NCBI GenBank assembly: GCA_032358255.1
Contig: JAULBX010015753.1
Span: 1-64,000, forward strand
Direction of reading: 5' to 3'
Source of the DNA: Heterotrichella gracilis
Taxonomy: Eukaryota > Sar > Xanthophyceae > Tribonematales > Xanthonemataceae
Length of the DNA stretch: 64,000 nt
Shown piece by piece: positions 372-39,719 of this stretch. Position 1 is the first letter of the stretch, and every line of letters begins with the position of its first letter. The position numbers were made by a program, and so were the translations under genes. The notes beneath the pieces were generated by a model. The model was not told where the DNA came from. It did not search any database and saw only the letters and a program-made list of their open reading frames with translations.

Positions 372-3300
372 CGAGTTCCACGCCACCGACCCCGAGGCTG
401 TGCGTGAGTCAGGGCTGACCAAGACCGACCAGCGCCTGCTGCTGGGGGCACTGGAGTACAAAGACAAGAGGTGAAGGGGTGGGGTGGGGCGGCTGATGGA
501 GTGTCCTGAACGCGTGTGGGGGGGACGGGGCCCACAAACGCTATGTCCTGGTGGCCCTCATTCCTCTTCTACACAGGATTATTATATAATAATAATCATT
601 ATCAATGATTATAGCCATGGTTGCTACCGTAAAGGTCTAGGGCTCGGGGTCCAAGGCTTGAGATGCACCCCTCCTCCACCCCGCTTGTGCAGGGTTTCCG
701 CTGTAATGACCAGCCTTGACCAGTGCTACATGCTAGAGCGGGGCGTGCACCTCAGCTTTCAAGTCATGCTGGACATATACAAGAGCGGGTTCACGCGCAT
801 ACCGGTGTACGAGGGTGAGCCTGCGTTAGGGTAGGAGGAAGGGTTTCTGTGTATTCTGAAGGTATAATGGACATATGCAAGAGCGGGTTCACGCGCATAC
901 CGGTGTATGAGAGTGAGCGTGCAGTAGGGTAGGGTCTAGTGTGTCGGAGCACTCCGGTGGTATAAAGCAAGGGCGCAGGGTGGACAGTGTATGTGTTTGG
1001 TAGACTAATTTGGTGCCAGCACTAACCTTAGGTTGAGACACACTGCACTTCTGAAAGTTGTCACCTGCAGCATGGGTTTGCCAGCAGGTGAGTGTCAGCA
1101 CACTGTTGTCACACTTAAAAAGCTAAGCTTAGGCCTGTACTAGGGCTCAATCTCAGCCTGGCACTTGCCCACAGGTGAGCACGCCGTGGGCATCCTGTAC
1201 GCCTAGGACCTCACCTTGTTAGGGTTCATGGTTTAGGGTTATAACCCAGCATGTCCATGGCTGCAGGTGAGCGGCAGCACATTGTGGGCATCCTGTATGC
1301 CAAGGACCTCATTTTGGTGGACCCAGATGATGACGTGGAGATAGGCACCGTGCTGTCATTCAGGTGCGGGTGCGGGGTGGCAGTGGGGGTAGGTGTGCCC
1401 TCAAAAAGGGTTTTCAGTAAAGGAACTTCTTGAACTTGCTACCTGCCCTCCTGAGTTGTGCTCCCCTTGTCACACCACGATGTCTTGCCACCTGGCACGC
1501 CCCTACCCTGTCCATCCACTGCAAGTAATACCCGCCACGCATGCCGCGCAATGCACGCAACTTGACTGCATAAGTACCATTACAAAACACCCATACATCA
1601 CAATTCCGATACTCCAGGAGGAAAAGCCGTAAATTTATTTGATGGCTTATAACAAAATTGACAGCCAATGAATGCTGTATTTCCGTTGCCCATACAGGGG
1701 GCGAGACCTTGCGCATGTGTACGAGGATGTACAGCTTGACAGGGTGTTTGCGCATGGCATAGATATGGAAATCACCTGGGAATCACTTGAAAAATCATGG
1801 CAATTACAAAAACACTCAAAACACAAATCCAATTATCCAGGAGGAACAGGTATATGTTTATAAACAGAAAGTCATCAACAAATGCTGTGATTCCATTTTG
1901 AATATCCAGGGGCCGCGACCTTGCGCACGTGTACGAGGACGTGCAGCTTGACCGGGTGTTTGCGCAGTTCATGGGCAGCAACAGCCACATGTTCATCGTG
2001 CACGCGCCACCTGGCGGGCCCCCAGGCGACTACCACGCACCCACGCGGGTCACTGGGGTAATCACGCTGGAAGATGTGCTGGAGGAGCTCATTCAGGTGG
2101 GGGAATGGGAGGGTGGGGGGATAAATGGGGGGCTGTGCAGGTTGATGGGTTGGGTAGGTGGGCAGAGCCTGAGATAGAGTGGAGGTTGGGGAGGTTTGGG
2201 GTTGATCACGCTAAAGGACGTGCTGGAGGAGCTCATCCAGGTGGGGTGTGTGGTGGGGTTGGAAGTGTGTGCGTGTGTCATTTTCATTTATTTATGGTGG
2301 GGGGGCTTGTTCTGGTGGCTGCGTTGGATGAAGGCCTGCGGTGGGCTCAGGGTTTAGGAATTAATTTTCTTTTCCTTTCTGACTGTCCCGTCCCCAGCCT
2401 GAGATTATCGAAAAACCAACAACTATAAGGGCGTAAAACCACCTGACCCTAAACCCTAAACCCTCTAAACCTCAGTCCATCACCAAACCCTAAAACCCTA
2501 TTCCCCCCCACCGCAGGCTGAGATCATCGATGAAACCGACAACTACGAGGACGTCAACACGCGCAGGCCACGCAAGTCAGCCGCAGGCACGGGACCGCTG
2601 TTGGACTTCCTGGCAATGTTTGACCACAGGTAAGGGTAAACTGTGGTCGAGGACGAGAGGGCAATGCCTGCTCTGCCGTAGCCAGCTCCCCTTGGCCACT
2701 GCTCAAAGACAGGCAGGCTGGGTAGCCTTTTGCTTCTTGATGGTATACACCTCTCCCCATTCCTTAAAATACTGCCTCAGGGTCACCGTGTGTGTTTCGT
2801 TATGTCTCTTATTATAATCAATTATCAATAAACTGTTAGTCCATTGTTTGGCCATGTTCCTGCGCAGGTTGGCCGCTGGCAGGGCGCTGTCTAGCCAGGA
2901 GGTAGCCGCAGTGACTGCCTTCCTTGCGCTCAATGTGCCAGAGTTTGGCCAGCTGGCAAGGAACGAGGTGGCGCTCAAGGTGGGGCAAACCTTGAGCTAG
3001 GGTGTTGGTGTGAGGACATGTGTGTGGATTTGGATTTGCTACCTGCCCTCACGTGAACCACATGAGGTTCCATTTCTACCTTATGAGCGCTATCCTACAA
3101 CGTGAAACACACAGCGATCGTATATCATGGAACACACAAATCCCATCAGTTAAACCTGCAGCAGTGAAATGCGTGAGCCACACCGTATCACGTCCCTTGT
3201 CATACCGCATAATGCCCCGCCCCCACCCCCCGCAGGGCCTTGTGCGGCATGCGTCTGTGCATCCAGACCCTAAACCTTAACCCTAATCCCCCCGCAGGGC

Positions 3301-5594
3301 CTGGTCTGTCACGCAGAGCTTGTGGATGTGCCCTTAGACCCATAACTCTCAACCTTGACCCTAAATCCTAAACCCTTATCCCCCGCAGGGCCTGGTCCGC
3401 CACGCAGAGCTTGTGGATGTGCGCCCAGACCCCCCATCCCCAACCTCTGAGGGGTGCAGCCTGGGAGGCGCATTTGGTGGGGGCTCCCTGGGATGGGAGG
3501 AGGGGGTGGAGGTGGGGGCGGAACGAGGGTTGGTTCTCTACCGCAGGGGTCAGCCCTCTGATTCGTTCACACTCATTCTGCAGGTGGGTGGGTGGGGTGC
3601 ATGTTGGAGATGGGGTGGGTGGGTGAGTGGGGTTGTAGACGTGGGTGCGGGAGTCTGGTGGTGGGGATCAGAGATTTGAATTAAGTTTGGAACTATAATG
3701 TGGGCTGTTTTTGGCAGTGTGCGTCTGTTTAGGGACCTTCACAGGGCAAGCCATGCTCCCATCTCCCATCACCCTGCACAAACCCCACCCATCGCCCACC
3801 CCGCATTGTAAGGTGCTCATCCGCACCGGCGGCGAGGCATCCCGCCAGGAGCTCCTCCAAATTACATTCCCTAGGGTACCCACCCAAATACACAGCACAT
3901 ACACCAACAGGTTAAGTGCCTTATTGGCAATCCCCCCAATCCCCTCAAAACATATTACCTTTTCAGATCAAGAGCATCCACCCCCTATCTCGCAGGGCAA
4001 GGTGCTGATCCGCACGGGTGATGAGGCATTCCGCCTGGAGCTGGGCCCGTGGAGCGTGATGGGAAACAAGGCGCTCACCAGGGGAGGGTAAGTGCTTAGG
4101 GTCGCGATTCTGGTCCGCTAGGATTAAAAACTGGAGAAAATATTGTCATGAATATTGCATCAATATTGGTAGGGAATTGGCAATTGTAATGCTGCACCCC
4201 TTGTATGTAGACACATGAGGGAATGGACAGCCTCTGAGGCTGGGGCGCTCTCTCACTCTGTCTCCTCCTCAACCAATGCCCTAATACTGGAGATCTTGAT
4301 GAGGCCTCCGGAGCATTAGTTACTTCTCTATTTTTGCCTCTCTGTTTTTTTAGTAGCTGTAATACAGCGCATTTTGATGGTAATGTATGCCATGCTATTT
4401 GATACAGGTACTGCCCCGACTTTGACGCGCGCGCTGCCCCGGGTGCACGGCTGGTGCGTGTGAGCCGAGGGGGTTTCATGGCAGCAATGGAGGCCACCAG
4501 GATAAACAGCGTGATTGGGGCGCAGGTGGGGAGTTTGATGTATTGATGATGGGGAGGGCAGGGGGGGGATGTCAAAAGGGTGAGGGACGGGTCCAAGATG
4601 ATGGTGGTGGTGGTGGTGGTGTGGTGTGGAAGTGCCAGTGGGGCAGTGATCAAGGGAGGGGCATGCTGCGTTAGTCACAGACACCACCAGCCCCACTGCT
4701 GCCGCTATGTGCGCAGCGGCTGCCACATCCCCATCCCTCCCTCCCCTCCTGCCACGTATGTGCACCCACCCCCCTACCACCACCACCTGGCTCCCCACCA
4801 AAGGCCCTCAAGCAACCGCTTGAAGCATAACCCTAAGCTCTAAACCCTTAACCCTTAACCTGCTCCTTTCAGGCCTTCAAGCACCACCTGAAGCAGAACC
4901 GCTCATCGGCACCGCAGCTGGCAGGGGCTGAGTTGGGGTGCAATGCAGGGCCACCACCAGATGCCAGTGCCAGCAATCGGCATGGGGGTGCAGGTGCGGC
5001 AGGGTTGGGGGTGGGGTTTGTGGCTCCAGGAAGGGGGGTGCTGGGTGGACAATGGTGCCTGGTAACAAAAATGAATATGCTCAAATTTAATGGAACATCC
5101 ATGAATATATGTTCGAACATGTTTGTGTTCACCATTCATGCAACTTTCTGAGTGCCGCATGCATCCCCTCTGTGTCCCCTGTGTGCCAAACAATTCACTC
5201 CCCACCACCCACAGGCTCCACACCCCCGAGCCCTACACCACCGAGCCCCTGGCACACACACCCCACCACCGGCACCCGTGAACCCCCACCGCCACCCCCC
5301 ACCAGAGCCAGCGGGGTGTCATGGGATCCAGCTCTGGCATGCATCACCAGCCAGGATGATGAAGGAATGGATCAAACCCTAAATTCTACATCAGACTCCC
5401 CTTTTGCCTCTATCCGCAGCAGGTCGTTTAGGGCGTACAAGGGGCCCCTCCCCCCCCGGGGCGGGGGTGGTGGGGAGGGGGATGTGGAACTTGGGGTGGT
5501 GGGTGGTGGTGGGGGCCAAGGGGGTGGTGATGCAGGGGAGGGGGGTGAGGAGGGGGACCCCTGGCAGCCGCTGCTTGCAGTAGACAGGGGGTGA
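372..5594 (+). CDS. CNNM/cyclin-M-type metal ion transporter, 3' part (5' end outside window)
   Basis: Exons by splice consensus and frame: 372-470, 693-814, 1267-1363, 1910-2096, 2517-2629, 2868-2979, 3389-3583, 3996-4087, 4408-4525, 4873-4993, 5215-5594. They join in frame into about 544 residues ending at TGA 5592-5594. The order matches the cytosolic half of CNNM (ancient conserved domain protein) Mg2+ transporters: linker GALEYKDKR, first CBS motif with MTSLDQCYMLERG and GFTRIPVYEGE, then ILYAKDLILVDPDDD, second CBS motif ending VTGVITLEDVLEELIQ, the linker AEIIDETDNYEDVNTR, and a cyclic-nucleotide-binding-homology domain with SDSFTLILQGKVLIR and LGPWSVMGNKAL. The membrane DUF21 domain must lie left of the window. 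The tail is rich in Pro and Gly and poorly conserved; the donor of the penultimate exon (4993) was chosen because it keeps frame and fits CAG|GTGCGG. Several introns carry degenerate copies of exon ends. Confidence 0.9.
866..917 (+). repeat. exon echo: 3' end of CNNM exon 693-814 plus donor
   Basis: This intronic segment repeats about 50 bases of the preceding exon end (771-823), with a few substitutions, through the splice donor and into the following GTAGGGTAGG sequence. It lies downstream of the real exon. The copy begins inside the exon and cannot be spliced in as a whole exon. It is not needed by the conserved protein. Confidence 0.85.
1168..1215 (+). repeat. exon echo: acceptor and 5' end of CNNM exon 1267-1363
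   Basis: A CACAGGTGAG acceptor is followed by a diverged copy of the start of the next real exon (GTGGGCATCCTGTA is shared). The copied reading frame meets a TAG where the real exon reads an aspartate-containing AKDL stretch, so it is non-coding. It lies upstream of the genuine exon. Confidence 0.85.
1611..1760 (+). repeat. exon echo: acceptor and 5' end of CNNM exon 1910-2096
   Basis: The stretch copies the end of the intron and the first 60 or so bases of the exon that begins at 1910: a CAGGGGGCGAGACC acceptor, then codons for GRDLAHVYEDVQLDRVF. Similarity extends upstream of the acceptor (AATGCTGT and CAGGAGGAA blocks occur in both), which implies a tandem duplication of roughly 220 to 230 bases. 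After the GVFAH region the copy runs into unrelated sequence. Confidence 0.85.
2194..2243 (+). repeat. exon echo: 3' end of CNNM exon 1910-2096 plus donor
   Basis: The segment repeats the last 40 or so bases of the preceding exon (codons for LEDVLEELIQ, here with a LKDVLEELIQ reading) and its CAG|GTGGGG donor. It lies downstream of the genuine donor at 2096/2097. Confidence 0.85.
2393..2430 (+). repeat. exon echo: acceptor and 5' end of CNNM exon 2517-2629
   Basis: CCCCAG followed by a diverged copy of the exon start (GAGATTATCGA versus GAGATCATCGA, then AACCAACAACTA versus AACCGACAACTA). It lies upstream of the genuine exon, separated from it by CCCTAAA-like repeats. Confidence 0.8.
3222..3345 (+). 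repeat. two exon echoes of the 5' end of CNNM exon 3389-3583
   Basis: Two successive copies of the acceptor plus exon start lie upstream of the real exon. One reads CCCGCAGGGCCTTGTGCGGCA near 3230. The other, near 3294, extends about 45 bases through a HAELVDVP-like reading. Each copy, like the genuine one, is preceded by a CCCTAAA-rich polypyrimidine tract, so the repeat unit of roughly 90 bases includes the branch/polypyrimidine region. Confidence 0.85.
3806..3860 (+). repeat. exon echo: 5' end of CNNM exon 3996-4087
   Basis: A diverged copy of the start of the next exon. It reads KVLIRTGGEASRQELLQ in the copied frame, against GKVLIRTGDEAFRLELGP in the real exon. The acceptor AG of the copy has become TAAG. 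It lies upstream of the genuine exon. Confidence 0.85.
4798..4824 (+). repeat. exon echo: 5' end of CNNM exon 4873-4993
   Basis: A short diverged copy (AAGGCCCTCAAGCAACCGCT) of the exon start at 4873. It lies upstream, and CCCTAAA/CCCTTAACC repeats fill the gap before the genuine acceptor. Confidence 0.7.
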
Positions 5595-6836: not shown

Positions 6837-9800
6837 CTATGCCCTGAACGTCTCCACCATCTTGCGCAGCTTGGCTTCCGAGTTTGCCCACTGCTTGTTG
6901 TCCGCTGACACCACAAACAGCAGCGCGATGTTGCCCTGCAGATATGGGGACATGGGGGCCACAGTCAACACATGCTCCAATCCTTATGCACCTGGCGTTC
7001 ACGAGGATGGCGACTCATGATGCCAGGAAAAGCAACATACACCGGCACATGACCTCGGGCTTGCGTATCAATGATGATGATCATGATGGAATGCTGGTGC
7101 TCATTATTGTCATGCTGATTAAGGTTGCAATGGCGGTGGCGACACCAACACCCACGCCAACACCAGCATCCCACAGCATGCAATACATCATGCTGCTGCT
7201 GCTGCTGATGGCGCACCTTTCAGCATCATGGTGCTGGTGATGGCGAAGGCAGCCAACATCCCATAGTACGTGACAATGTGCATGCCATTCTAGTGCACCA
7301 CAATGGCATGGTGATGGTAGTGTCGCACCTTTGTGGTGGTTGGTGACAGGGCGTGGGGCCCACAGTATATGACAGTGCGCATGCCTAAACCCTAAACCCT
7401 ACATCAAGTGCGCCACAATGGCATAGTGATGGTAGTGGCGCACCTTTGTTGTGATTGCTGACAGGGCGTGTGGGCCGCTGGTGCCGTAGGGCGCGTTGAT
7501 CTCGTATTGGTAGTACTGCGCAAGGGGGCAGAGGGAGGAAGTCAAAAAGAGGGGGGACGTGGGAATCGCCAAGGAGACTATGGGTTGCGTTACCCTATTG
7601 CCTACTGGATCTGGTTTAATGGGACGTTCTTCGGTTTCTATGTGGGAAATCTTTGAGGTAGGTTTGATGATCATTTCTGGTGCTACTTTTTCCATTCAGC
7701 TGTCACTCGGGAAGCGCATTGCCCCTGCATGCCTTTCCAGATTTGGGCGCCGCCTCCAAAACACCATCGTTCTCCTGTCATACGTCCGCCATGCCGCAGT
7801 GCCTCCCAAGACAACCCTACACCCTCCCATGCATGTTTCCGCAACCCCTAACCCCAGCACATCACCATCCCTTAGACCCCCCCACATAACCCTACCGCCC
7901 TCACCGCCTGCCGCTGCAGCGCCTCCATTGCCACAACATTTCTAAACCCTAACCATTGCGCCCAAACCCCTACAGCATCCCTAAATCCTAAACCCTAACC
8001 TTGGTCTTAAAACCCTATCGCCCTCACCGTCTGCCCGTTTTTCTGCAGCGACTCCATGCTCACCACATCCTCGGTATCCAGGTAGGTGCCTGCAGGGGGA
8101 GCAGGAGGTGGGGAGGTGGGTGATGAGGTATGGTAGGAAGGGGGAAGGGGGTGGGGCGGGTGTGCAGAGGGGGAAGAGGAGGTGGGTGGGGCGTGTGTGA
8201 CATGGGCAACAGGGTGTAGGTTAAAAGGCAGGGGGCCAAGGTGGCGGGGAGGCATGATTGAGACACCGAGCAGGAGAGTGCGCACATGCAATCGCGGCTA
8301 GGGTTTAGCGTATGGAGTTGAGTGGATGTGGCCACTCAAAGCATTTGCAGCCATTTGCCCCATGCGAATAATTTGGCCCCTCGGCCCACATAAGCCCTTC
8401 GCCCCCCTCGGCTCTTGCTGGATGCCTCCAAGCTAATCAGCATCACCCTACCAAAACCCTTCTAAGTATACAAATTAAATTGCCCCCCCAAGACCCTACA
8501 GGGTTTTCCCTGCCCACCTGTGATGAATGCCCCGATTGACTCAACGATTCCCTCTGGTGGGCCAATCTCCTCAAGACTTGGGTTGGCCTTGTTGGTCAGG
8601 CGCACAAGGGGGGCAACAATCACCTGGAATGAGGGGGGGTGACACTCACGAGGGAGGGGGATGATCACTGAGATCAGGCATACAAGGGGGAATAATTGCC
8701 ACAGCAATCGGGCACACAGGAGGGCCAGAAAGCATGGGATAAGGCACAGAGGAGAGTCCATGCAAGCGTGGACAGATCACACACAGCCATGCATCCCTAA
8801 ACCCTAAACCCTAAACCCTAAACCCAAATTTGTTGCAGCACTGGCATGCAGTGCACACAGGGATGCGGAATGCGGCTTGCTGGGGACAGGATATCATCGG
8901 GCTGCTGTGTTCTGTCAAGTAAAACCCAGTATAGGGTACGTGCTTGGAGCAGGGCCCAGCGTGGATGCACCTGTATACACATACCCCTCGTCTAGGGTGT
9001 AGGGTCAAGGGTTAAGGATTTGGCTCACCACTGCTTTGCCCTGCGTAGGGTCAGCGAACACCACCTCGGTCCAGGGCTCGGCGCACTTGGGCTGCGGAGG
9101 GGGCAGGGGTGGGTGGGGGTGAGGGGGTGAGCACGGAAAGGTCGGGATGGTTGACCCATCGCATGTGCATTGGTATTGGTTCAGCAAATGCCAGACATAA
9201 TTTAGGAGGCAAGCTCCACCAATTGGCCCAGGCAACAATTATATATGCCCCCCCCTAGCTTGTTGTCAAGGGGGCCCATCTGCTCCCGTTCCTTCCCTAA
9301 TCAGTGCCCCCATTAGTGCTCTCCCCTCCCTCCCCTTCCTTTCCCCAAACCACTGATGCTCAACTGGCAGTAGTAGTCATCCCTAAACCCTCGTCCCTAA
9401 AACCCTAAAGCTGCTCACCTGGCAGTAGTTCCCGCTCTGTATGTTTGCCACCTTGCCCTCCCGCCAGGTGGGGGGCATGGCGAAGCGGTAGGGGTTGGCG
9501 GAGTCAACCGTACCCGCACGCAACGCCTGCAGAGGGGAAAAGTATAGTTGGCGGACTGCGGAAACCCCTAAGCTGCTGGGTGTGAGAACACCTAAACTCT
9601 AGACCCTAAGCGGCGGGGTGTGTGCACGCCAAAATGAGGGAACAAAAGGATGCATTGACGAGTCCCAGCGCTGGCGCCTGGGAAGGTAGATAACAGGGGA
9701 GCATGGCGTCGAGGCAGGAGTGTGCAGTATCGGCGCATAAGTTTTTGCTGCCCCCTTGGTGTGCTTAGTTGCAAGCTAGTGTGCAAAGCAGAGCGCGGGA

Positions 9801-10970: not shown

Positions 10971-13900
10971 ATGGAGTCACTCCTCGCAGGCAGCTCGACA
11001 CAGTCGGTACCATGCTTCACCAGCAGCAGTAGGACGAGCCAGCGTGCTGCCAAGACGCAGGCGTTCCAACCAGTAAAGGCAGGGAGGAAGGCTTTCCTGG
11101 GCTCTAGCGAACACCTGGTCCACAAAACAGCCACGTTCAAAGCAGGCACGTAGCCATGGAATTGGCACTGAATGTCGCAAAATTGGGTTGCTAGATATTG
11201 TGTAACTTGGGTCTAGGCATACATTGGTATTGTGAGTAACGAGTATGATCTGACGCAGGTTTCTCTGCACGGAGCAGCAGCAGCATCCAGGCCTCGGCAG
11301 CTGGCGTGTCAAAGACGTCAGGCACACCAGTGCCAAAGACCAGCATCCTTGTGGTGGGAGCAACTGGGACGCTGGGCAGGCAGGTGGTGAGGAAGGCTCT
11401 GGACGAGGGCTACGACGTGAGGTGCATCGTCAAGCCACGAATGTCCCCAGCTGACTTCCTGCGTGACTGGGGAGCAACCACTGTGCAGGTACAAAGCCCA
11501 AACAGTGGTGGCAACCTGCCCCACCCAGCCTCTTGCAATATTCTCTAGAACAACCAGGTTGTAAACCCATTTGGTGCTTTAGAACAAGCACCCAGCTGCT
11601 GTTGTTGAAGAGGTGTGCGTCTGTGGGCTGACCTGACACAGCAGGATCGCGCAGGATCACCAGTTGGGTAGAAGCAGCGTCAGGGCAGAATTGCTTTAGC
11701 CACAGGTTGGGCAAGGCTGACTGTAGTGCTGGAATGCATGCTATGGCAAATAACTAGTGTTAGTATCCTGTGTGCCTCTGCAGGCTGACCTGACCGACCC
11801 CACCTCCCTGCCAGCGGCCCTGGTGGGTGTGCACACCGTGATTGACTGCGCCACCGCGCGGCCTGAGGAGTCCACTGAGAAGGTGGACTGGAACGGCAAG
11901 GTGGCCCTCATTCAGTGCGCACAGGTACAGCCACTGCAAGCAAAGGCAACTGTCTGACTTCACTTTTCAAACTGCCAAGTACTGCCCTGGCTTCCTGCCA
12001 GTATAACGGGAAGAATTGTACATGCCATCAACTAATTATGCGTTTACTATGCTGCTATCTCCCTTTGTCTGTCTGTATTGCCGTTGTCTCCGTCAGCCCT
12101 CTGCTGTTCCACCCTGCACTCTCAAGCCCCCACAGTCTGACTATTGTCGCTGACCCGCCACACCCTCGCTCGTGCCGCCAGGCCATGGGCATCCAGCGCT
12201 ACATCTTCTTCTCCATCCACAACTGCGACAAGCACCCCGAGGTGCCGCTCATGAACATCAAGCACTGCACGGAGAAGTACCTGGAGTCAAGCGGGCTCAA
12301 CTACACGGTGTTCAGGCTGTGCGGGTTCATGCAGGTGGGCAAGATGACAATAGCGCTTACCCCATGTAGTTTGGTGCTGCACATGTACATTTGCTTTAGT
12401 CAGACAGCCAGCAATTGCCTGTTGGTGGTAAAGTGCTTGCGCCTGGATTGCCGGATTGCTATCATGTCCTGCTCTGCCATTGCCATTTTTCGCCATGCCG
12501 TAGGGCACTCCCTGGTACACCGCACCTGCACCTTGAACCCTCTCGGCCATCATCAGCAATTACACGGTGCCCAGACACCATTACAGCCCCGTGCCCCCAT
12601 AGCAACCCCACCTTGACCCGCACACCCCCCTCCTGCAGGCCATCATCGGCAACTATGCTGTGCCCATCCTTGAGGAGAAGTCTGTGTGGGGAACCAGCGA
12701 CCAGACGCGCACCGCCTACCTGGACACGCAGGACGTGGCGCGCATGACGCTGGCGGCGCTCAGGTGCGCGCTGTAGGGTCTAGGGTTTTAACGCTGGCGG
12801 CGCTCAGGTGCCTGGTTTAGGGTTCAAGGTGTTGATGCTGGCGGCGGTCGGGGCCGCACTGTCTTGTGCACCCATGAGCCCTGTACTCCACATGAACATG
12901 TGGGGCTTGGCATGCATAATGCTGGCGGCACTTGGCACGCTGCCTCAGGGCTCTGTGCACCTCCCCACACCTCGTGGTATGCCATGCCACAGCATGCAAA
13001 GGAGCAAGTCCCAGCCTGGGGTTGTGGAGTGCATGGGAGCGATACATAATGTCGGTGTGATTGCCTGCAGGAGCGAGGCCACCTCTGGCAAGACCCTGAC
13101 CCTGGCGGGCCCCAGGGCATGGACCACCCAGGAGGTGATCCAGCTGTGCGAGAAGTACGCGGACGCAGACGCAGAGGTGCGCGCCCAGCCCCCCGGGTTG
13201 CCAGAATTCTGAACTGTCAACTCTAACAGTGCGCGCCGAGGAGCCTGAAAATCAATTTAAAGGAAAAAACCACTTGCATCACTAAAAAACGCGCTGTTAT
13301 GTCGTGGCATGTGCCAGGTCTTCTGCGTTGCATGTACCCCCATCACGCGCACACTGCTGCACGCCATGCCTGGCCGTGTGGGATAACTCATGGGCTGCGC
13401 CCATGCTGGCGCCAATGCTAGGGCTTTGGCGCTAGCCCCCAGGCCACATCCCTTCCTATTTGCTGCCCACCCACATCGATACATGTCAGGCAAAGCGACC
13501 CAATCAGCGTTATCCCACAGCCTTATGCACGCCTTTACCTCGCACCCACCACATCCCATCTCCCCATCGCACCACTTCTGCACCACCGCATCCCCACCAT
13601 CACGCGTGACCCCCCACCCCCCACCCCTCCAGGTGACGGAGGTGCCTGTGTGGCTGCTGCGGGCCACTCGGGGCATCCTGAAGGGGTTCCAGTGGGCGCG
13701 CGATGCTGCCGACCGCCTGGCGTTTGCCGAGGTGCTGGCCAGCAACGAGACATTCGCGGCAGACATGGAGGAGACGTACAATCTGCTGCAGGTAGGGATT
13801 TTATCTTGGTAGGGTTTGATGTGTAGGGTTTGTAGCAGATGTGGAGAAGAACCATGACCTGCTGCATCAGGGGATCTCTGTCATTCTCAAAAGCTAGCTC

Positions 13901-25700: not shown

Positions 25701-28700
25701 GGCGGCGCCACCAGCGTGGACACCCGACGGCCGCAGCGAGGCGGATGCCGCCGACGAAGCCGAAGCGGAGGCGGCGGCCGCGGTGCTTGCCGACGCATGG
25801 GAGCGCGCCGCGGCGGAGGGCGCGGGAGACACCGCCTCACCGCCGCTGCCGCCGCTGACCGGCAAGCTGTCAGGGGCGTATGGGCAGCTGTCGGATTCCT
25901 TCCTTCCCGCCCAGCCCGCCCTGCAGCCGCCAGCACCCGCGCCGGCGCCGGAGCCTGCATCCAAGGCTGCCAGCGGGCGGGTGAGCGCCTACGGCATGCT
26001 CGCGGATCGCTTCCTCCCCGCCAAGCCTCCAGCGCACGATGCGGCGCAACTACAGTTCCAGCTGCAACGCGGTGCCGGCAGCGGGGGTGCGAATGGGAAT
26101 GGTGGTGGTGCGTGGTCCAATGGCAGCATGGGGCGGGGGCATGGGGCAGGGCACCAGGATGTAGCTAACGGGAGCGCAGAGGAGGAGGATTTGAGCGACT
26201 ACATCACACGTACGTGCATATCCTGCATTGTGCACATTGCGCTTATGTGCACCCTCTTAAGGGTATGGTAGTGCTACAGGCAGGCTTGCGCACCGGCCTG
26301 AGCGCATGCACACCATTCTTTCCTCCCATTTGCCTGCCTAATGACAAGGCAATGGAGCATTAAGTCCACATACATGAGGTATGCATATTTTATGCATGGT
26401 GTACTCACATGCCACCCCCCACATGCAGGGGTGGACTCAGGCGGCTCGCTGCCACTCTCCCGCCACGCCTACCTCACACGGGAGCCCCACCACCCCAGCG
26501 CCCACTGGCGCGCACCCTCCTCCGCCACAGGCAGCGAAGCAGGGCACAGCCAACCTGAAAGCCCACCTGCCTCTGATACCGATGGGCCGGCCCCCGCTCC
26601 CCATGCCCCCTACTCGTCGCTGCTTGCCCCGCCCATGGGACTGCTGGGCAATGGGACGCGGCTGTCGCCGCTGCCGCCGCCGACGCCCGCCGGCAAGGCG
26701 TCAGGTGAGGCACCGTCAGAGCAATTGATTTGATTGTCTAAATTCTAAAAACGAATTAGCATTTAACTTATCCTTCTTATAAATTTAATTCTTTTAAATG
26801 ATAAAACACAATTCATCTTAAGCAGAGAAAGTTATTCTTATTTTTTTAGCGCCCATTGGAGGGAGAGGGTGAGACTGAGGTGTTGGGCATGAGTGGGGAT
26901 TGCCAAAGGGTGTGTGACGCGTCTGGGAAGGGGCCAATGGGCATCGCATCTTCCCACCACCCACAGCCACGCGACCACCACACTGTGGGTACTGAGCCCC
27001 CCTCAACCCCAACTAACTACCCTGACCTAGCTCCCCCTCCCCTGCCCCCAGGCACCGACCCCCCCAAGAGCCGCGCCTCGCTGTTTGAGGCAGGTGCGGA
27101 GCGCCAGTCTGTGTTCCGGGCGCTGCAGGAGCACATCGACGAGCTCACATGCGCCAAATTTGAGCTGCAGCGCGCGCTGGAGCGCCAGGCGGTGCAGGTG
27201 CAGGAGGAGCAGGAGGCGCAGGCGGCGGTGGCGGACAAGGTCAACGCACAGGTGGGTGGTGGTGGTGATGGGTGCTGTGGTGGTGGTGGTGGTGGTAGTG
27301 GAAGGGCAGGCGGCGGTGTGGGAAAAGGTCAACACTCAGATGGGTGGTGGGGTGGGTGGCAGCGGTGGTGGTGGTAGTGGAAGGGCAGGTGGCGGTGACG
27401 GACAAGGTGGGCGGTGGTGGTGGTGGCGAACAAGGTCAATGTGCAGATGGGTGGTGGTCCTGGTGGTGGTGTTGGTAGTGGTGGTGGTGGCGGACAAGAT
27501 CAACGCGCAGGTGGGTGATGGCGGTGGCAGTAATGGTGGTGATAATGGAAGGGCAGGCAGCAGTGGCCGAGAAGGGTCTACAGGTACCTGAGTGGGTGGG
27601 CTGGTGGGTAGATCCTGGGTAGCTAATTCCCGCACTGCCAACCCAAACCGATTTTTCTCTCGACTCCTTCCTCTCCCTTTCCCAGGCTCATCACATTGAG
27701 GAGCTTGAGAGACAGCTGCAGCAGTGCCAGGCCTCCATCGGGGTCCAGGTGGCGGCGCTGGAGGCCATGGCGCGGGAGAGGGACGAGTGCAGGATGGCGC
27801 AGCACGAGGCGGCGGAGACGGCAAAGGTGGGGGTAAACCCTAAAACATTAGTAGTCCTAAACAACCAGCTAGTATATGCAGATTAATGAGTGGGGTTGGA
27901 GACTTGCATGCTGAAAGTAAGGATTGACTCAATGTATTACTTTCAGATTGGCTGTTCAGAACCACACTGTGGTGTCTCTTGTCTCTTATTTTTTGGTAAA
28001 TATACCAGCAAAAGTGGTCCTTCATGTCCTTGCCTGCTCAAGCCCCCTTACATGCCCCGCAGAACCTCGCCACCGAGGCCATCTCGCTAGAGGAGTCTGT
28101 TGTTGAGCTGCGGGGCCGCGAGGGGCGCCTGGTGCGTGAGCGCGACGATGCGGTGGCTGACCAGCGCAAGCTGCAAGCCAAGGTGGCTGCCATGCAGAAG
28201 GAGCGGGCGGGTCTGCTGGCAACACTGGAGGAGATGGGGGTGCGTGGGGGGATGGGGATGGTGGTGGTGGCATGGATGGCGGTAGTCTATATGTGGGTGG
28301 CTGGGGAGATGGTGGTGGCGGTGGAATGTATGATGATGGTGGGGACGACGATGGTTGCGTGAGGACAAGGTTGCACGGTGGTGTGGGGGATGCATTGGAG
28401 GCAGGAGACTGACGGCAAGGGGAGATGGCGGTGGTGCAGTCCACATTGCAGCGCCTGCTGGCATTAGCATGGCTATGGCTGTGCATGAGGAGCGCCTTCG
28501 CCTCATGGAGGTCTCAGCTATCATATCCCAAACCCTAATCATCATTCCTAACTGCGCAGGAGGAGCGTTCCCGCCTCAGCTCACGGCTGCGCCAGATCGA
28601 GATGGGCAGGGCGCCCACCTCCACCTCCACCCACCATCCTGTGGCCACCGCCGAGCTGGGGGTGCAAACAGATGACATGGCGCCGCCTTCCCCCACCAGC

Positions 28701-33460: not shown

Positions 33461-33746
33461 TGATGGAGCATCTGATGATCACACTTGTGATGACAGCACA
33501 TCTGATGGTGACACATCTGGCAACGGTGGGGTGACGGGTGAAGGTGCATGCACATCTGATGAGTCATCTGATGTTTCATCATCGGAGGAAGATGGGGTGA
33601 CAGGGGAATCATGGGTGGATGAGGTGGCGGGTGAAGCACGGGTGGATGGGGTCACGGGGGAATCAGATGATGAAGGGGGATCAATTGACTCTCGGGATGG
33701 TGTGACGGGGTGCACAGCACCTAAAATGTGTTGTTCTATTTGCTAA
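33461..33746 (+). other. acidic coding-like repeat after the F-box stop
   Basis: Just after the stop, another frame is open to 33746 and encodes a strongly acidic Ser/Asp/Glu/Gly-rich stretch. It has repeated units (ESDDGASDDH, then GVTGES twice and DGVTG) built from TCTGATGATG-like and GATGGGGTGACGGG-like DNA repeats. No splice event was established that would attach it to the F-box protein. It could equally be repetitive 3' UTR. Confidence 0.4.
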
Positions 33747-35067
33747 TAGTAATGTAGGCTTTTTCTCGTATCTGATTCATCCATACGCTCGCCTCCTGTA
33801 TTTAACTTGGCAAGCAACGCAATGCAATGGCCCACCATGGGTGGGGTAGTAAATGGGCTTTCACAACACCCTTTATTCTGCAGCAGAAATTACATTACCT
33901 ACCTTTTCTTGCACCATCACAGTCACCAGACTGGATACTGAGTAGACAATTACCTATTGGCAATAACAGCCCGTCAGATCCATCCGATGTTGATCGTTGG
34001 TAACACCACCAATTTGCCAACTCTGCCTACTGTAGGGATCACCACCCACAGGTCCACCCCGTCCTCGCCTTGGCACAGTGCGTGACTCACAGCTAGCTTG
34101 CCTATTTATTTTTGCTTTATTTGTAATTATTTTATATTAATTCAGTTTTCATGCAAAACTTTACAGTAGTACAAGCAATGCCAGGACAGGGTTGGGTGGG
34201 CGCAAGCTTGTACAAGGCTGTTTGATCTGATCATCTGGCTTTTGTGTGGAATGCATTTAATCACTTGACTCAATTATTGGTCAGACCAGCAGTCACGGTA
34301 ACCGTTCTCCTACAGGCGCCAGCGCTGGTCGGTGGCACTGCCTTGGGGCGAGCCAGTGGCCCCTTACTCCATCAAAGAGTCTTTGTGCGTCCCCTTTCTT
34401 TCTTTCTTTCTTTTTTCAAAAGACTTAATTTAAACGTTTGAAGTGTATTTACAGTGAACACTGTGCCACTGGCAGACACCAATACTGCACTGCAATGATG
34501 TCGTGACATGCATGACAGTCCAGTGCACTGTGGCAGTCAGACTCAGACTCAGCCTCAGACTGGCAATTAACCATGACTTGACTCATGAATGGTGCACCCG
34601 GTAGCCACCGCGGTGCATAAATAACGAATGGAGATTGCGGTGCAAGCGCCAATATGCCAACCATCAACCTTTCATCTCAAACCCCCCACGCAATCCCCCA
34701 ATCTCCACAGGCCAGGCAAAGGTCTAGTAGGCCATAGTAGGGTAGGGTCACAGCCTGTGCACGGCGCTAACAGCTAGTGTGCCGTACAGCCTAGTAGGCT
34801 ACCTCCTCCAGGACCTGCACCACGCCCACCCACAGTCACAGCGATCAAAACACCAACCCATCCCGCAGTCTGCAGTTATCCACCATGCTGTGCATGCTGC
34901 ACCACACACGCCAGGTGCACACCGTTACCCTGCTGCACCCCATGAGGAACCCCAGCTCCTTGCCATCACTATCACCCCAGTGCGCGGGTAACACACCCTG
35001 GAGGGTTTCTCCGCCAGCATTACCCCGCTGCACCCCGTAGCAGGTACCCTAGTCCAGGGTTCACGCC
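33747..35067. other. intergenic, no gene seen
   Basis: This is AT-richer sequence between the F-box gene and the convergent PRXQ gene, with a short (CTTT)n tract near 34395. No conserved frame is recognised. Confidence 0.6.
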
Positions 35068-35123
35068 GCCACCACCGACTTGATTGCCTTGAGCGCCTCC
35101 TCAATGTGCTTCTCGCTGCACCT
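35068..35123 (-). repeat. exon echo: 3' end of PRXQ terminal exon
   Basis: A nearly exact copy of the last 50 or so bases of the PRXQ coding sequence (the segment at 35149-35205, codons for HIEEALKAIKSVVAA and the stop). It lies immediately downstream of the genuine end, separated by an AACCCTAGCTCGGG-like spacer. The copy therefore sits in the 3' UTR or flank. Confidence 0.9.
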
Positions 35124-35148
35124 CTTAACCAAAACCCTAGCTCGGGGT

Positions 35149-37420
35149 TCACGCCGCCACCACCGACTTGATTGCCTTGAGCGCCTCCTCAATGTGCTTC
35201 TCGGGGTTGAACTGGTCGTTGAAGGAAAGCACGCACTTGCCATCCTTGTCAATCACATACGTCTGCAAGGGGTGTGGGAGGATGAGTGGCGAGGGTTTGG
35301 GTATGGAGGGTATTGGGTATTGTGACCACGCAGCCTTGTCAATAACATACGCCTGCAAGGGGTGGGGGAGGGAGGGCGTTGGGTGGGGATGTGTGGTTAG
35401 GGGATGCAGAGTACAGTGGCCATGCAGATGCGCCATGCAGCATCCCCCCGACGCGACATGCCTGGTGCAAATGCCAGCACAGCGCCACCTTCCGCCACCA
35501 CCCACATCCAGGGGGCAGCCCTATGAAGTCTTTCATGATGCCGAGGGCAATGCGCAGCAAAACCCCCTATGGGTGATGTCGCCACTCACCTGCCTGCCGG
35601 GCAGCAGCCCCATGAGGTCCCCCTTGATGCCAAAACCCTTCCCCCATCATTACCTTACCAACAAAACCCCGCTTTCCTACTTCACATTAGGCATAGCTGT
35701 TACTCACCTGCCTGCCGGGCAGTAGGCCCATGAGGTCCGCCTTGATGCCAAAGGCCTTGCGCAAGAAGTTGCCCTGGTCCGACAGGAGCGGGAAGGTCAC
35801 GCGGTTGGCGGATGCGAACGCCGCGTTCTCCTCCGGCGTGTCGCCGCTGATGCCAAACACCTCTGCGCCCGCCTTTGTGAATGCCTCGTAGCGGTCGCGG
35901 AATGCGCATGCCTCCTTGGTGCACCCGGGGGTGGCGGCCTGAAGGGAAGGATTCAATCATGGTTCATGAGTCAGTTATAAAATCATTGATTTTATACTAA
36001 TGAGAGGATTGTGTCATTCAGCACGACACTTGTTTATTGATTTCATTACTGTTGGTGCACCCGTGGATGGCGGCCTGTGAGGCAGGATTTTGGAAAGAGA
36101 CACTCATGGAACCAGTGAATTTGTTACAAATCCCCAGGGAAAAGGCACAGGGTAAGGCGTCGCAGACGCGTGCACCGGTAGGTGAATGGCGAGGTAGCAG
36201 TTGCGGAAGGCGCACGCCTCCTTGGTGCACCTGGGAATGGTGGCTTGCAAGGGGGTGACGATCAGGGTTACTGGTAGGGTTATGGGTGGGGTAGTGGTGC
36301 AAACTGGACTGGCGGCCTGGGAGGTCCTTTACCCTATAGGATAAGGGGAAGGGTATGGTCGCCGCATCGAAGCAGCGCAGCCATGGCCTACTGCTCGTGT
36401 ACGAGGATGTAGATCATGGTCAAGCATGCCAGAGCACGTCACGCAGCGTGTTCGGGATACCTTTAGAGGAGCGGGCTGGGAGTGCCCTCGGTTAGGGTTA
36501 TTAGTGCGCACCTTAGGGTAGAAGAAGAGCACCACGGGCTTCTTGCCCTGGAAGTTGGACAGGGCCACTGCGCCGCCGTCGGAGGCCTTCAGGACCCTAA
36601 CAGAACCACAACCAAGGGTTTTTGGATCCATCGACGTGCACCACATAGGAGTGTGCGAGTGTACTGTATAAGGGTGGGGTTGTGTTGTGCCCAAGGTGGG
36701 TCCTTGCCAGTTGACCTTCAGTGGCAAACAGCAGGTAACTGTGTTGTGGGAAGACAAGACACTTAAAGGGTTTTGCCAAGCGCAAGGGAGAGCATCACGG
36801 GGTGCACGCTTAGGATGATGAATGCTTGGCGTCCCATGCAGTGCAAAAAAGGGGAAATCAAGGGAGGCAGATGGGACAGGTAGGTGGCATTTTGGCGGAG
36901 CCTCACACCTGTAGTAGTCTGAGTAGTCCTTGAGCTTGTCCCCCACCTTGAGCTCGGCCTGCACCACACGTGGCACTGCTCATGTGTGTGGTCACAATCA
37001 GGGGTATACTAATGATTCTAACACTTAGCATAGTTAGTATACCCCTGTCACAGTTGTGGTTGCAACCACACCCACGGTGGCATGCATGAGACGTCATGCC
37101 ACCCATATCCACACCGACACACACGACACAACATGACACAGGGACAGCCTTGAATAGCCCACTGAGGCTATGTGCTAACAGAGAGGGGTACTAAGGAAGT
37201 GGGATATGGTGTGAATTACTGAAAAGGGTCTAGCTACAACACTTGAAAACACATTCCTCACTGGGTATTACTGAGGTGCACCTAGGTGGTGCCCCCACAC
37301 ACGTACCGTTACCCTCAGGGCTGCCCGTCGTGATACTTGTAGCCTGCCCACCTGGCCACGGGGGAGCCTGGCGATGCTTGCTGTGCGGCCAGGGGCAGTG
37401 AACGCCTGTGTGCGCAACAT
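35149..37420 (-). CDS. PRXQ: Peroxiredoxin Q, chloroplast type
   Basis: Thiol peroxidase of the PrxQ/BCP class, which reduces peroxides in plastids using thioredoxin. Minus-strand exons: 37313-37420 (ATG at 37420), 36909-36958, 36512-36596, 35708-35938 and 35149-35262 (TGA). They join in frame to 195 residues. The Arg/Ala-rich start (MLRTQAFTAPGRTASIARLP) is a typical algal transit peptide. The mature part starts near AELKVGDKLKDYS. The signature TPGCTKEACAFRD carries the peroxidatic Cys87 and the resolving Cys92, five residues apart as in PrxQ. VFGISGDTPEENAAF, FPLLSDQGN, LPGRQTYVIDKDG and FNPEKHIEEAL complete the fold. The first intron's donor could instead be at 37351/37352, shortening exon 1 by 13 codons. 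The gene shows the densest set of exon echoes in the window. Confidence 0.93.
35333..35362 (-). repeat. exon echo: acceptor and 5' end of PRXQ terminal exon
   Basis: CCTTGTCAATAACATACGCC followed by TGCAAGGGGTGGGGGAGG copies the exon start and acceptor at 35244-35281 (CCTTGTCAATCACATACGTC, then TGCAAGGGGTGTGGGAGG). It lies upstream of the real exon in the sense of the gene and retains a perfect CTTGCAG acceptor. Confidence 0.9.
35505..35645 (-). repeat. two exon echoes: 3' end of PRXQ catalytic exon plus donor
   Basis: The plus-strand segment near 35585-35632 (CACCTGCCTGCCGGGCAGCA, then CCCCATGAGGTCC-CCTTGATGCC) is a close copy of the exon's 3' end at 35705-35752. It keeps the CAG|GTGAGT-type donor. 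A second, more diverged copy lies near 35515-35570 (GGGCAGCCCTATGAAGTC, then ATGATGCCGAGGGCAATGCGCA). Both are downstream of the genuine exon in the sense of the gene. Confidence 0.88.
36045..36262 (-). repeat. two exon echoes: acceptor and 5' end of PRXQ catalytic exon
   Basis: Upstream of the cysteine-bearing exon, two diverged copies of its start occur. The one near 36048-36085 reads AAIHGCTN in the copied frame. The one near 36195-36250 reads ATIPRCTKEACAFRNCYLA. Both have acceptor-like AG ends. The second preserves both catalytic cysteines yet alters the PGC context and then diverges, so it cannot substitute for the true exon. Confidence 0.88.
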
Positions 37421-38482: not shown

Positions 38483-38540
38483 GCACATGCCCAGCTGCTT
38501 CAAGTTGCTGCGTATGTAGCGTGGTGCACCATGCCCCCCC
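38483..38540 (-). repeat. exon echo of bL35 terminal exon
   Basis: CATGCCCAGCTGCTTCAAG followed by TTGCTGCGTATGTAGCGTGG and TGCACCATGCC is a diverged copy of exon sequence at 38650-38708 (CATGCAGAAGCCCAGCTTCT, then GGTTGCGTATGTGGAGTG and CAGCACCATGGCC). It lies beyond the stop codon, downstream in the sense of the gene, as in PRXQ. Confidence 0.8.
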
Positions 38541-38636
38541 ACCCGCCACCACCACCACCACCACCACATCAACCCAACTCGTCGAGTGCATCCAGCTGTG
38601 TGCTCCTGTATTCCCTGCGCACCCAGGCCCACCCCA

Positions 38637-39719
38637 TCACCCATGGTATCGCATGCAGAAGCCCAGCTTCTTCATGGTGGTTGCGTATGTGGAGTGCAGC
38701 ACCATGGCCTTGCGCAGCTCCCGGTTGCGTTTGGGGCTCTTGGGGAAGCGCTTGTGCCGGTGGCCCGGCCGCTGGCACATGACCTTGCCCGTGCCGGTGA
38801 TCTTGAAGCGCTCCTTGTAGGAGCTGCAAATGGAGATGGAGAGGGTGGGTGAGGAGGGTGGGCGAGCAGCGTTTTGGGCATGCGGTTTGGAGTGCTGTTG
38901 GTGTAGGGTTTGTGGGAGTGGGGGTGGGTGATGAAGGAGAATTTTTGTGGAGACCTTTTTTGCAGAGAGCTGCAACGCGTGCCGGTAGCGGGTCTGTCAT
39001 GGAGCTGGGCGGCGGGAGGCAAGTGGACAGGTGAAGGCTGGATGCCATAGTGGCTTTGCCGCGCAGTGCGCAGCATGGCAATACGTGGAAAGTGAAACAC
39101 GCAGATTGATAGTGGGTCCTGAAACCTGCTGCTGCTGCTGCTGCGTACTGCCCTTATGCTAGGACTCACTGGCCCTTATGCTAGGACTCACTGGCCCTTA
39201 CCTATAGGGCTTGAGCTTGCCACCCACGTGCGGTGGCTTCAGCTTTGCAAAGCCTCGTTGTTTCTGGAGCAGGTGGTGGATCCTGTGCAGGGTCGTCGCA
39301 TGCTGCAGAACGGGACAAACGCCATCAAACAGTGTATGCATGCATTACAATGTGATGACATGCATGCAACTAACCTGCGAATTGCAACAGCCCACACACA
39401 TGTGTGCACACCCATAACAGCAGAAGTTATTAGCGAGTACAGGCATGCAATCACAGGCTCGATTACCCGCCAAGGTGGGCGTGCATGCACCGTGGCCACC
39501 ACCCACCTGGACGTTAATCCCTTGGGACCCAAATCGTTGCGCTAAGTGATCTGTCAGGGACACAAACCCCCTCCACCCACTACTGGAAGCCTGGGGCAGT
39601 CCCGAAGTGGAGGGTACTTGCCAGATGCGTGTGGCGTGCTGTGTCAAGGCTGTGTGTTTGGTGCATGCGGCTCCTAGCTGGTATAGAGCACTAGGCAGCT
39701 GGCGCAAGAGCCTGTTCAT
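38637..39719 (-). CDS. Ribosomal protein bL35, mitochondrial type
   Basis: Large-subunit ribosomal protein L35 of the bacterial class. Minus-strand exons: 39507-39719 (ATG at 39719), 39202-39302 and 38637-38823 (TGA), 166 residues in one frame. The start MNRLLRQLPSALYQLG, rich in Arg, Leu and Ser, resembles a mitochondrial presequence. The core KLKPYSSYKERFKITGTGKV, then PGHRHKRFPKSPKRNRELRK and YATTMKKLGF, matches plant mitochondrial bL35, including the S-Y/F-K-x-RFK entry and the HRH core. Plastid import cannot be excluded from sequence alone. Next to the exon 2 donor the intron start is duplicated (22-base units at 39151-39194). Divergent from OS-9 with 674 bases between start codons. Confidence 0.85.
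39151..39194 (-). repeat. 22-base tandem duplication at the bL35 exon 2 donor
   Basis: CCCTTATGCTAGGACTCACT plus GG occurs twice in direct tandem, and the next CCCTTACC contains the genuine donor. The duplicated unit is the very start of the intron in the sense of the gene. Confidence 0.95.

What the first reader, a model, noticed from the sequence alone, without database searches (positions are those of the whole stretch)
761..39194. Exon echoes: a directional rule for degenerate exon-end copies in introns of at least six unrelated genes
In the CNNM, PsbP-domain, HCF244, BLISTER, PRXQ and bL35 genes I found over twenty short diverged copies of exon ends. Every one obeys the same geometry: 5' exon ends with acceptor are copied upstream of the exon, 3' exon ends with donor (or stop region) downstream. 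That is what repeated local tandem duplication across exon-intron borders would leave if only the copy continuous with the exon body stays under selection. The density in one window, the range of ages (near-exact to barely visible) and the recurrence in functionally unrelated genes point to a genome-wide process that generates decoy splice sites and lengthens introns. I know of no established name for this.
Basis: partly seen in the sequence, partly recalled or inferred. Interest (0 to 1): 0.88.

Follow-up and report, generated by a model that had tools for sequence, protein, structure and literature searches.

The report
Tandem-duplication scars at exon ends
In a stretch of what looks like a green-algal genome, many exon edges have worn, non-coding copies of themselves in the neighbouring intron, left by repeated small tandem duplications, with telomere-like repeats often lying near the joins; it is a readable record of how introns can lengthen.

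Summary
In the six named genes, exon-end probes match the adjacent intron on the predicted side in 18 of 67 tests, on the wrong side in 1 of 60; exon middles match in 2 of 30. A self-scan finds 41 local direct repeats (about 0.5 in shuffles); 26 join an exon end to an intron or 3' flank, and all 26 obey the geometry.

The mechanism is ordinary in kind: small local tandem duplication filtered by selection. Some intron flanks repeat too. Repeat units inside ORFs are multiples of 3 (7 of 7), border offsets are not (10 of 26). The "directional rule" is therefore forced geometry. Copies make up roughly 23% of intron length (hand tally). A true preference for exon ends is not established.

One unexpected lead: telomere-like TTTAGGG/CCCTAAA heptamers lie within 20 nt of 10 of 24 program-set echo junctions (3.1-4.7 expected, P 0.0002-0.011), more weakly within 10 nt (6 of 24; 2.0-3.3 expected). 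This hints at break repair with telomeric filler, but was noticed and tested on the same data. Genome-wide reach could not be tested.

The parts
761..814 (+). CNNM exon 1 3' end (source); exon ends at 814
   Evidence: CNNM by phmmer
859..965 (+). Echo of CNNM exon 1 3' end with donor and intron flank, offset 98, contiguous tandem unit
1068..1111 (+). Second echo of CNNM exon 2 5' end with acceptor, offset 179
1178..1218 (+). Echo of CNNM exon 2 5' end, offset 98; TTAGGGTT directly at its junction
1267..1363 (+). CNNM exon 2
1698..1754 (+). Echo of CNNM exon 3 5' end, offset 212; intron part 1585-1638 also repeats at 1808-1861
1910..2096 (+). CNNM exon 3
2197..2246 (+). Echo of CNNM exon 3 3' end with donor, offset 143-144
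2399..2437 (+). Echo of CNNM exon 4 5' end, offset 119-120; CCCTAAACCCTAAA follows 8 nt after it
3220..3252 (+). Second echo of CNNM exon 6 5' end with acceptor, offset 153
3266..3358 (+). Echo of CNNM exon 6 5' end with acceptor, offset 91; both units begin GACCCTAAA
3389..3583 (+). CNNM exon 6
3786..3853 (+). Echo of CNNM exon 7 5' end (acceptor AG lost), offset 189
4804..4832 (+). Echo of CNNM exon 9 5' end, offset 69; CCCTAA repeats follow
9357..9377 (-). Short echo of PsbP-domain gene exon 2 3' end (GT lost), preceded by TTTAGGG repeats; one search gave only p 0.035
7888..7939 (-). Echo of PsbP-domain gene exon 5 3' end with donor
7289..7361 (-). Echo of PsbP-domain gene exon 6 3' end with donor; the exon-side copy carries a 16-nt TAGGGTTTAGGGTTTA that the echo lacks
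11613..11637 (+). Weak echo of HCF244-like exon 2 5' end (p 0.045)
12546..12573 (+). Echo of HCF244-like exon 4 5' end, offset 93
12747..12852 (+). 44-nt tandem array: HCF244-like exon 4 3' end (to 12763) and its copies with donor
12890..12932 (+). Further echo of HCF244-like exon 4 3' end, offset 172
27279..27339 (+). Echo of BLISTER-named gene exon 5 3' end, offset 88 (GGT-rich; donor lost; absent from the filtered list)
27547..27575 (+). Further weak GGT-rich match to BLISTER-named gene exon 5 3' end, offset 335
28479..28505 (+). Weak echo of BLISTER-named gene exon 8 5' end, offset 73 (p 0.04)
35877..35938 (-). PrxQ exon 3 5' end (source)
36052..36089 (-). Echo of PrxQ exon 3 5' end, offset 136
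36182..36252 (-). Echo of PrxQ exon 3 5' end, offset 306
36295..36319 (-). Weak third echo of PrxQ exon 3 5' end, offset 378
35584..35640 (-). Echo of PrxQ exon 3 3' end with donor, offset 118
35508..35556 (-). Second echo of PrxQ exon 3 3' end, offset 207
35331..35371 (-). Echo of PrxQ exon 4 5' end with acceptor, offset 90
35026..35115 (-). Near-exact echo of the PrxQ stop region, offset 88
38483..38536 (-). Echo of the bL35 3' coding end downstream of the stop, offset about 172
39150..39200 (-). 22-nt perfect tandem repeat starting next to the bL35 donor (intron only)

Best explanation
The echoes are scars of repeated small local tandem duplications (neighbouring copies about 44-212 nt apart) that happened to span an exon-intron border or the stop codon. 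Each duplication copies the border head to tail. Only the copy that stays continuous with the rest of the exon can give the right mRNA, so splicing onto that copy is kept by selection; the other copy becomes part of the intron (or 3' flank), drifts and lengthens it. Upstream echoes of 5' ends and downstream echoes of 3' ends follow automatically. The likeliest source is repair of staggered double-strand breaks with fill-in of both overhangs and end joining. Shown here: contiguous units at several borders, the geometry, the frame filter in ORFs, drift of echoes at all codon positions. Inferred: the repair route, the splicing history, and that the rate is high throughout the genome.
For: Right/wrong/middle = 18 of 67 / 1 of 60 / 2 of 30; 41 local direct repeats vs about 0.5 in shuffles, 26 of 26 exon/intron pairs on the rule side. 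Local direct repeats outnumber inverted ones: 23 vs 2 within 1 kb at E<=0.01, microsatellites included; 52 vs 27 of 254 windows by a cruder score that counts palindromes twice. Intron-only remainders of the units also align in 7 of 18 (p<=0.01) or 9 of 18 (p<=0.05), one of the seven (PrxQ exon 3 upstream) by matching another echo rather than its own unit. Several units are contiguous: offset 98 with a 107-nt match, 91 with 90, 88 with 90. Repeat units inside ORFs 7 of 7 multiples of 3 vs border offsets 10 of 26 (Fisher p 0.007; the ORF list was chosen by hand). In 14 of the 28 echoes, those aligned without gaps by hand, mismatches fall 28/25/46 on codon positions 1/2/3, with 2 stops. 16 of 23 echoes examined keep the splice dinucleotide (my reading), near the 0.69 that about 83% identity would give; five of the 28 were not examined there, two of which (HCF244 12890, BLISTER 28505) look lost on the sequence.
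Against: In 9 of 18 cases the intron remainder shows no significant similarity; this fits decay but also a non-tandem copy. The border to intron-only ratio (26 pairs vs 3 clearly independent intron-only units plus 1 in a 3' flank, my sorting) is at or above the top of the 0.51-0.81 expected from uniform duplication with unequal decay; the binomial check printed, for 20 of 23, runs from P 0.0002 at a share of 0.5 to 0.30 at 0.8, so a border preference may be missing from the model. Reverse-complement controls were above nominal, 6 of 157. No relative, strain or RNA data were available to time events or prove which site is spliced. Exon models were drawn by hand.
Confidence: 0.85

Rival explanations
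1. A border-specific process makes the copies (for example breaks or template switching targeted to splice sites during transcription or splicing), rather than random tandem duplication.
For: 26 border pairs vs 3 independent intron-only units in the six genes; several echoes stacked at one border (PrxQ exon 3 5' end three; HCF244 exon 4 3' end three); in a partial intergenic sample only 1 of 35 windows had a self-repeat at p<=0.01 vs 12 of 32 introns.
Against: Uniform placement with unequal decay already predicts 51-81% border events. Repeats in ORFs and between genes occur too. The intergenic sample left out by hand the repeat-rich stretches 13.9-14.2 kb and 15.7-16.6 kb.
Confidence: 0.15
2. 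Intron gain by tandem genomic duplication: the introns themselves arose when an exon segment with AGGT was duplicated, and the echoes are the remains.
For: Same mutation type; known in many eukaryotes (passages of PMC3443670 and PMC2891723).
Against: That model makes the whole intron one unit with offset equal to intron length; here the offsets (44-378) are shorter than the introns, and several echoes include intron sequence beyond the splice site.
Confidence: 0.03
3. Echoes are kept for a function, as decoy splice sites or regulatory pseudo-exons.
For: 16 of 23 echoes examined keep the splice dinucleotide.
Against: That fraction is about the neutral expectation; mismatches hit codon positions 1 and 2 freely and 2 stops occur in 14 echoes; identities range from 0.69 to 1.00.
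Confidence: 0.04
4. Chance or composition: short exon words recur in GC-rich introns.
For: Reverse-complement controls give 6 of 157 at p<=0.01, above nominal.
Against: 41 repeats vs about 0.5 in shuffles; BLAST E-values to 1e-25; side asymmetry.
Confidence: 0.01

Closest known systems
Small tandem duplications from staggered double-strand breaks (CST/Pol alpha-primase fill-in plus NHEJ; PMC8355091, passages read)
   Same: Head-to-tail local units with no mobile element; the abstract calls them a signature abundantly seen in genomes.
   Different: There seen as new mutations at Cas9-nickase breaks in mouse embryonic stem cells; here an aged series at exon borders; repair genes not tested.
Intron gain by tandem genomic duplication (reviewed in PMC3443670 and Drosophila cases in PMC2891723, passages read; potato case PMC4974935 seen in a listing; Gao and Lynch 2009 seen only as a reference, not held)
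   Same: Tandem duplication plus splicing choice turns exon sequence into intron sequence.
   Different: Here existing introns are lengthened; the unit is shorter than the intron and spans one existing border.
Interstitial telomeric repeats inserted at double-strand breaks in mammals (PMC7215372, PMC2246262, passages read)
   Same: Telomeric repeat at a break together with duplication of flanking sequence is described (duplication class: 3 of 66 horse, 6 of 130 rodent, 4 of 25 primate loci).
   Different: There the telomeric insert defines the event and duplication is rare; here duplications are the main event and telomere-like heptamers lie in the 25 nt beside 12 of 28 junctions.
Natural short tandem insertions in rice and paired-nick duplications in plants (Vaughn and Bennetzen; Schiml et al.; recalled, not read)
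   Same: Same mutation class in the green lineage.
   Different: Not analysed at exon borders as far as I recall.

Membership tests
Local small tandem duplication | Two head-to-tail copies whose similarity covers the whole unit between them | tested here: met
   Met for several contiguous units (offset/match 98/107, 91/90, 88/90 nt); over the 18 significant echoes the intron remainder aligns in 7 at p<=0.01 and is not significant at 0.05 in 9
Local small tandem duplication | Occurs irrespective of annotation, with selection removing frame-breaking ones in coding sequence | tested here: met
   ORF units 7 of 7 multiples of 3; border offsets 10 of 26 (hand-chosen list, one ORF without homology support, one weak pair); whole-window list
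Break-repair origin (fill-in and end joining) | Dependence on repair genes such as Ku or CST | not testable with these tools
   No genetics available
Intron gain by tandem genomic duplication | Repeat offset equals intron length and both splice sites lie in the duplicated AGGT | tested here: not met
   Offsets are shorter than the introns
Introner elements | Near-identical intron copies dispersed over many genes | tested here: inconclusive
   One search counted distant self-matches but I did not sort them
Interstitial telomeric insertion at a break | Telomere repeats located at the repair junction | tested here: inconclusive
   Hand-set junctions: within 10 nt 9 of 26 vs 2.3 expected; program-set junctions: 6 of 24 vs 2.0-3.3 (P 0.007-0.09), within 20 nt 10 of 24 vs 3.1-4.7 (P 0.0002-0.011). 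Hexamers weaker, 10 of 28 within 10 nt vs 5.95 (P 0.046). Hypothesis formed on the same data
Interstitial telomeric insertion at a break | Empty ancestral site in a relative lacking both repeat and duplication | not testable with these tools
   No own genome and no relative found in the one scan made

The most novel reading that the evidence does not exclude
In this lineage breaks in genes are repaired by a telomere-like route: broken 3' ends receive a few TTTAGGG units, are filled in and joined, leaving a tandem duplication with a telomeric filler at the join. Introns tolerate these scars, so intron lengthening and the telomere-like motifs in introns are two marks of one repair habit, and exon echoes are its readable record.
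Probability: 0.25. Interest if true: 0.78.

Novelty: new variant of a known kind. Interest (0 to 1): 0.55.

Why it matters
How introns grow when transposons are not involved is, to my knowledge, poorly documented. Here about a quarter of tested exon borders (18 of 67) still show the mutation that lengthened the intron or flank, and because one copy is anchored in a constrained exon, the limits and relative age of each event can be read. That would make the rate, size spectrum and junction structure of small tandem duplications measurable from a single genome. If the telomere-like filler holds up, it links intron growth to telomerase or CST activity at breaks, a testable claim.

Tried and rejected
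Own-genome search: no genome held. Relatives through the F-box/LRR-like protein in viral contigs: nothing; no other collection was scanned. Pfam on raw frames was weak for CNNM; phmmer and joined exons worked. The first intron-flank script failed (a variable was not defined; I also saw that its search regions overlapped the source) and was rewritten. One search compared introns with a hand-chosen intergenic sample that left out two repeat-rich stretches; I do not rest on it and used the full scan. Border-specific mechanism: simulated, not needed but not excluded. Functional decoys: no sign. Intron gain by whole-intron duplication: offsets do not fit. Literature: the eight searches were read as listings with abstract beginnings, the top rows only where more papers matched; no listed title describes border echoes as a means of intron lengthening, but most subscription papers are absent and Gao and Lynch 2009 was not held. 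In one search the PPD exon 6 pair shows a 16-nt telomere-like insert inside one copy about 27 nt from the join, not at it, so such repeats also come or go on their own.
Full report
What was checked. The window looks eukaryotic and green-algal (intron-rich genes with plastid-type products; my inference), but no genome is held for it, so everything rests on 64 kb. I drew exon models for the six named genes from reading frames, choosing GT and AG borders, and verified that joined internal exons are open (PPD exons 6 and 7).

The echoes are real. Probes of 45 nt from exon ends against adjacent introns (or the 400 nt after three last exons), with 400 dinucleotide shuffles each, give p<=0.01 in 18 of 67 right-side tests, 1 of 60 wrong-side tests and 2 of 30 exon-middle tests. 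The one wrong-side hit is PPD exon 5, 62 nt long, at the same offset as the copy of its 3' end. Reverse-complement controls gave 6 of 157, so nominal p values are somewhat lenient. A self-scan of the six tracts with low complexity filtered lists 41 direct repeats against about 0.5 in shuffles: 26 exon/intron, 11 intron/intron, 4 exon/exon. All 26 exon/intron pairs are exon ends on the rule side. Several borders carry more than one echo (PrxQ exon 3 5' end three; exon 3 3' end two; CNNM exons 2 and 6 two each; HCF244 exon 4 3' end three, counting the 44-nt array). My working list has 28 echoes at 21 borders, 19 splice borders and 2 stop regions: 25 of the 26 pairs, CNNM exon 9 and BLISTER 27279, and HCF244 12835; the BLISTER pair at 27547 was left out.

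They are tandem duplications. Clear examples are contiguous: offset 98 with a 107-nt match, 91 with 90, 88 with 90. In CNNM intron 2 the intron-only part also repeats (1585-1638 and 1808-1861). Over the 18 significant echoes the intron-only remainder is similar at p<=0.01 in 7 and at p<=0.05 in 9; one of the seven (PrxQ exon 3 upstream) aligns with another echo instead. Nine are not significant, as expected for old copies in which both sides drift, but this also leaves room for non-tandem copies.

The rule is forced geometry. Duplicate a segment that spans an acceptor and the exon body can only follow the downstream copy; if splicing used the upstream copy the mRNA would gain an insertion. The mirror argument holds for donors and for the stop codon. 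So the rule says that these are border-spanning tandem duplications filtered by selection; it is not a further law. Two controls agree. Repeats inside ORFs have units 18, 21, 39, 57, 96, 111 and 327, all multiples of 3 (7 of 7), border offsets 10 of 26 (Fisher p 0.007). That ORF list was chosen by hand: four are in BLISTER exons, two in F-box/LRR-like ORFs, one (18) in an ORF without homology support, and 327 is a weak pair; two more units, 27 and 42, also multiples of 3, lie in uncertain ORFs and were left out. And in 14 of the 28 echoes, those aligned by hand without gaps, mismatches fall 28, 25 and 46 on codon positions 1, 2 and 3, with 46 amino-acid-changing, 31 silent and 2 stop codons: the echo drifts at all positions while the exon seems to change silently. 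Of 23 echoes whose border I printed, 16 keep the splice dinucleotide (my reading), near the 0.69 that about 83% identity gives; of the five not printed, two (HCF244 12890, BLISTER 28505) look lost on the sequence. So decoy sites seem neither kept nor purged.

Is there more than chance at exon ends? I simulated uniform placement of the observed unit sizes with decay on one side (border) or both sides (intron only). The expected border share is 0.51 to 0.81 over six settings of indel rate and age. I count 26 border pairs and 3 clearly independent intron-only units (9842/9804, 9634/9596 and 39200/39178), plus one in a 3' flank; the other seven intron/intron pairs are echo-to-echo matches or flanks of border units (my sorting). 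That share, about 0.9, is at or above the top of the range: suggestive of a border preference, not proof (one search prints P for 20 of 23: 0.0002 at a share of 0.5, 0.30 at 0.8). The comparison with intergenic windows (12 of 32 introns vs 1 of 35) is not used, because I had left out by hand two repeat-rich intergenic stretches; the full-window scan shows intergenic repeats too.

How much intron do they explain? One unit per echo sums to 2,716 of 11,614 intron nt, about 23% (hand tally). Introns with an echo have a median of 416 nt, those without 304.5 (16 each).

An unexpected association. Introns here are rich in telomere-like words: TAGGGT occurs 27 times against 2.6 in shuffles, but once in 7,193 nt of exon. 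While reading the echoes I saw that these words often sit where an echo ends. With junctions set by hand, a telomere heptamer lies within 20 nt of 13 of 28 (5.4 expected at random places of the same introns, P 0.0006; hexamers within 10 nt only 10 of 28 vs 5.95, P 0.046), and within 10 nt of 9 of 26 against 2.3 at the same side and distance in other introns (P 0.0002; two junctions in 3' flanks dropped). With the ends printed by the program, the signal is weaker: within 20 nt 10 of 24 (3.1, 4.6 and 4.7 expected under three controls; P 0.0002, 0.0006, 0.011), within 10 nt 6 of 24 (2.0, 2.7, 3.3; P 0.007, 0.02, 0.09), within 5 nt 4 of 24 (P 0.02 to 0.23). Comparing the 25 nt beside the junction with the matching end of the other copy (hand-set steps): junction only 10, both 2, other only 0, none 16 of 28. 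Orientation follows side: TTTAGGG after donors or the stop 6 of 6, CCCTAAA before acceptors 5 of 6, which could reflect avoidance of AG before acceptors. PPD exon 6 shows a 16-nt TAGGGTTTAGGGTTTA in one copy and not the other, but about 27 nt from the join, so such repeats also come or go on their own. Caveats: noticed and tested on the same data, and the junction zone is also the zone next to the true splice site, so a splicing role for the motif is a rival.

What is known. Small tandem duplications from staggered breaks by CST/Pol alpha fill-in and end joining are established (passages of PMC8355091). Intron gain by tandem duplication is established (passages of PMC3443670 and PMC2891723), but there the whole intron is the unit, which is not the case here. 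Telomeric repeats inserted at breaks, sometimes with duplication of the flank, are described in mammals (passages of PMC7215372 and PMC2246262). The Chlamydomonas comparison (PMC8226300, passages) reports conspicuously long introns in its group, names (TTTAGGG)n as the ancestral green-algal telomere and mentions break repair as a possible factor in intron number; the passages shown do not describe border echoes. Eight literature listings showed no title on border echoes as a means of intron lengthening.

Verdict. Observation confirmed; interpretation right on tandem duplication, overstated on the rule, on exon-end specificity and on genome-wide reach. Kind: a known mutation in an unusually dense and readable form, with a possible telomeric signature that would be new for this setting.

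Noticed in passing
introns of CNNM, PsbP-domain, HCF244-like and PrxQ genes (e.g. 1219-1245, 2445-2470, 9380-9412, 7395-7415): The telomere-like word TAGGGT is about ten times over-represented in the 32 modelled introns (27 vs 2.6) and occurs once in the exons; TTTAGGG lies mostly in the 5' and middle parts, CCCTAAA mostly before acceptors.
   Followed up: partly
15701-16576: Three tandem copies of a roughly 280-320-nt unit in a stretch without a gene model.
   Followed up: no
58078-58163: Perfect 42-nt tandem duplication in or beside an F-box/LRR-like gene whose frame changes there; possibly very recent.
   Followed up: no
31969-32085 and 58891-59045: 57-nt and 96-nt repeats, both multiples of 3, inside F-box/LRR-like ORFs.
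   Followed up: partly
31700-62200: Several F-box/LRR-like genes in both orientations, many as single large ORFs; the one tested matches LRR and F-box models only below their cut-offs.
   Followed up: no
36999-37047: Short imperfect palindrome (GGGGTATACTAA...TTAGTATACCCC) upstream of the first modelled PrxQ donor, perhaps a tiny inverted-repeat element.
   Followed up: no
37840-37922: TTTTC microsatellite of about 16 copies.
   Followed up: no
21263-21394: 19-nt direct repeat, offset 113 (score 17), beside a GTPase-like ORF outside the six genes, apparently in non-coding sequence.
   Followed up: no
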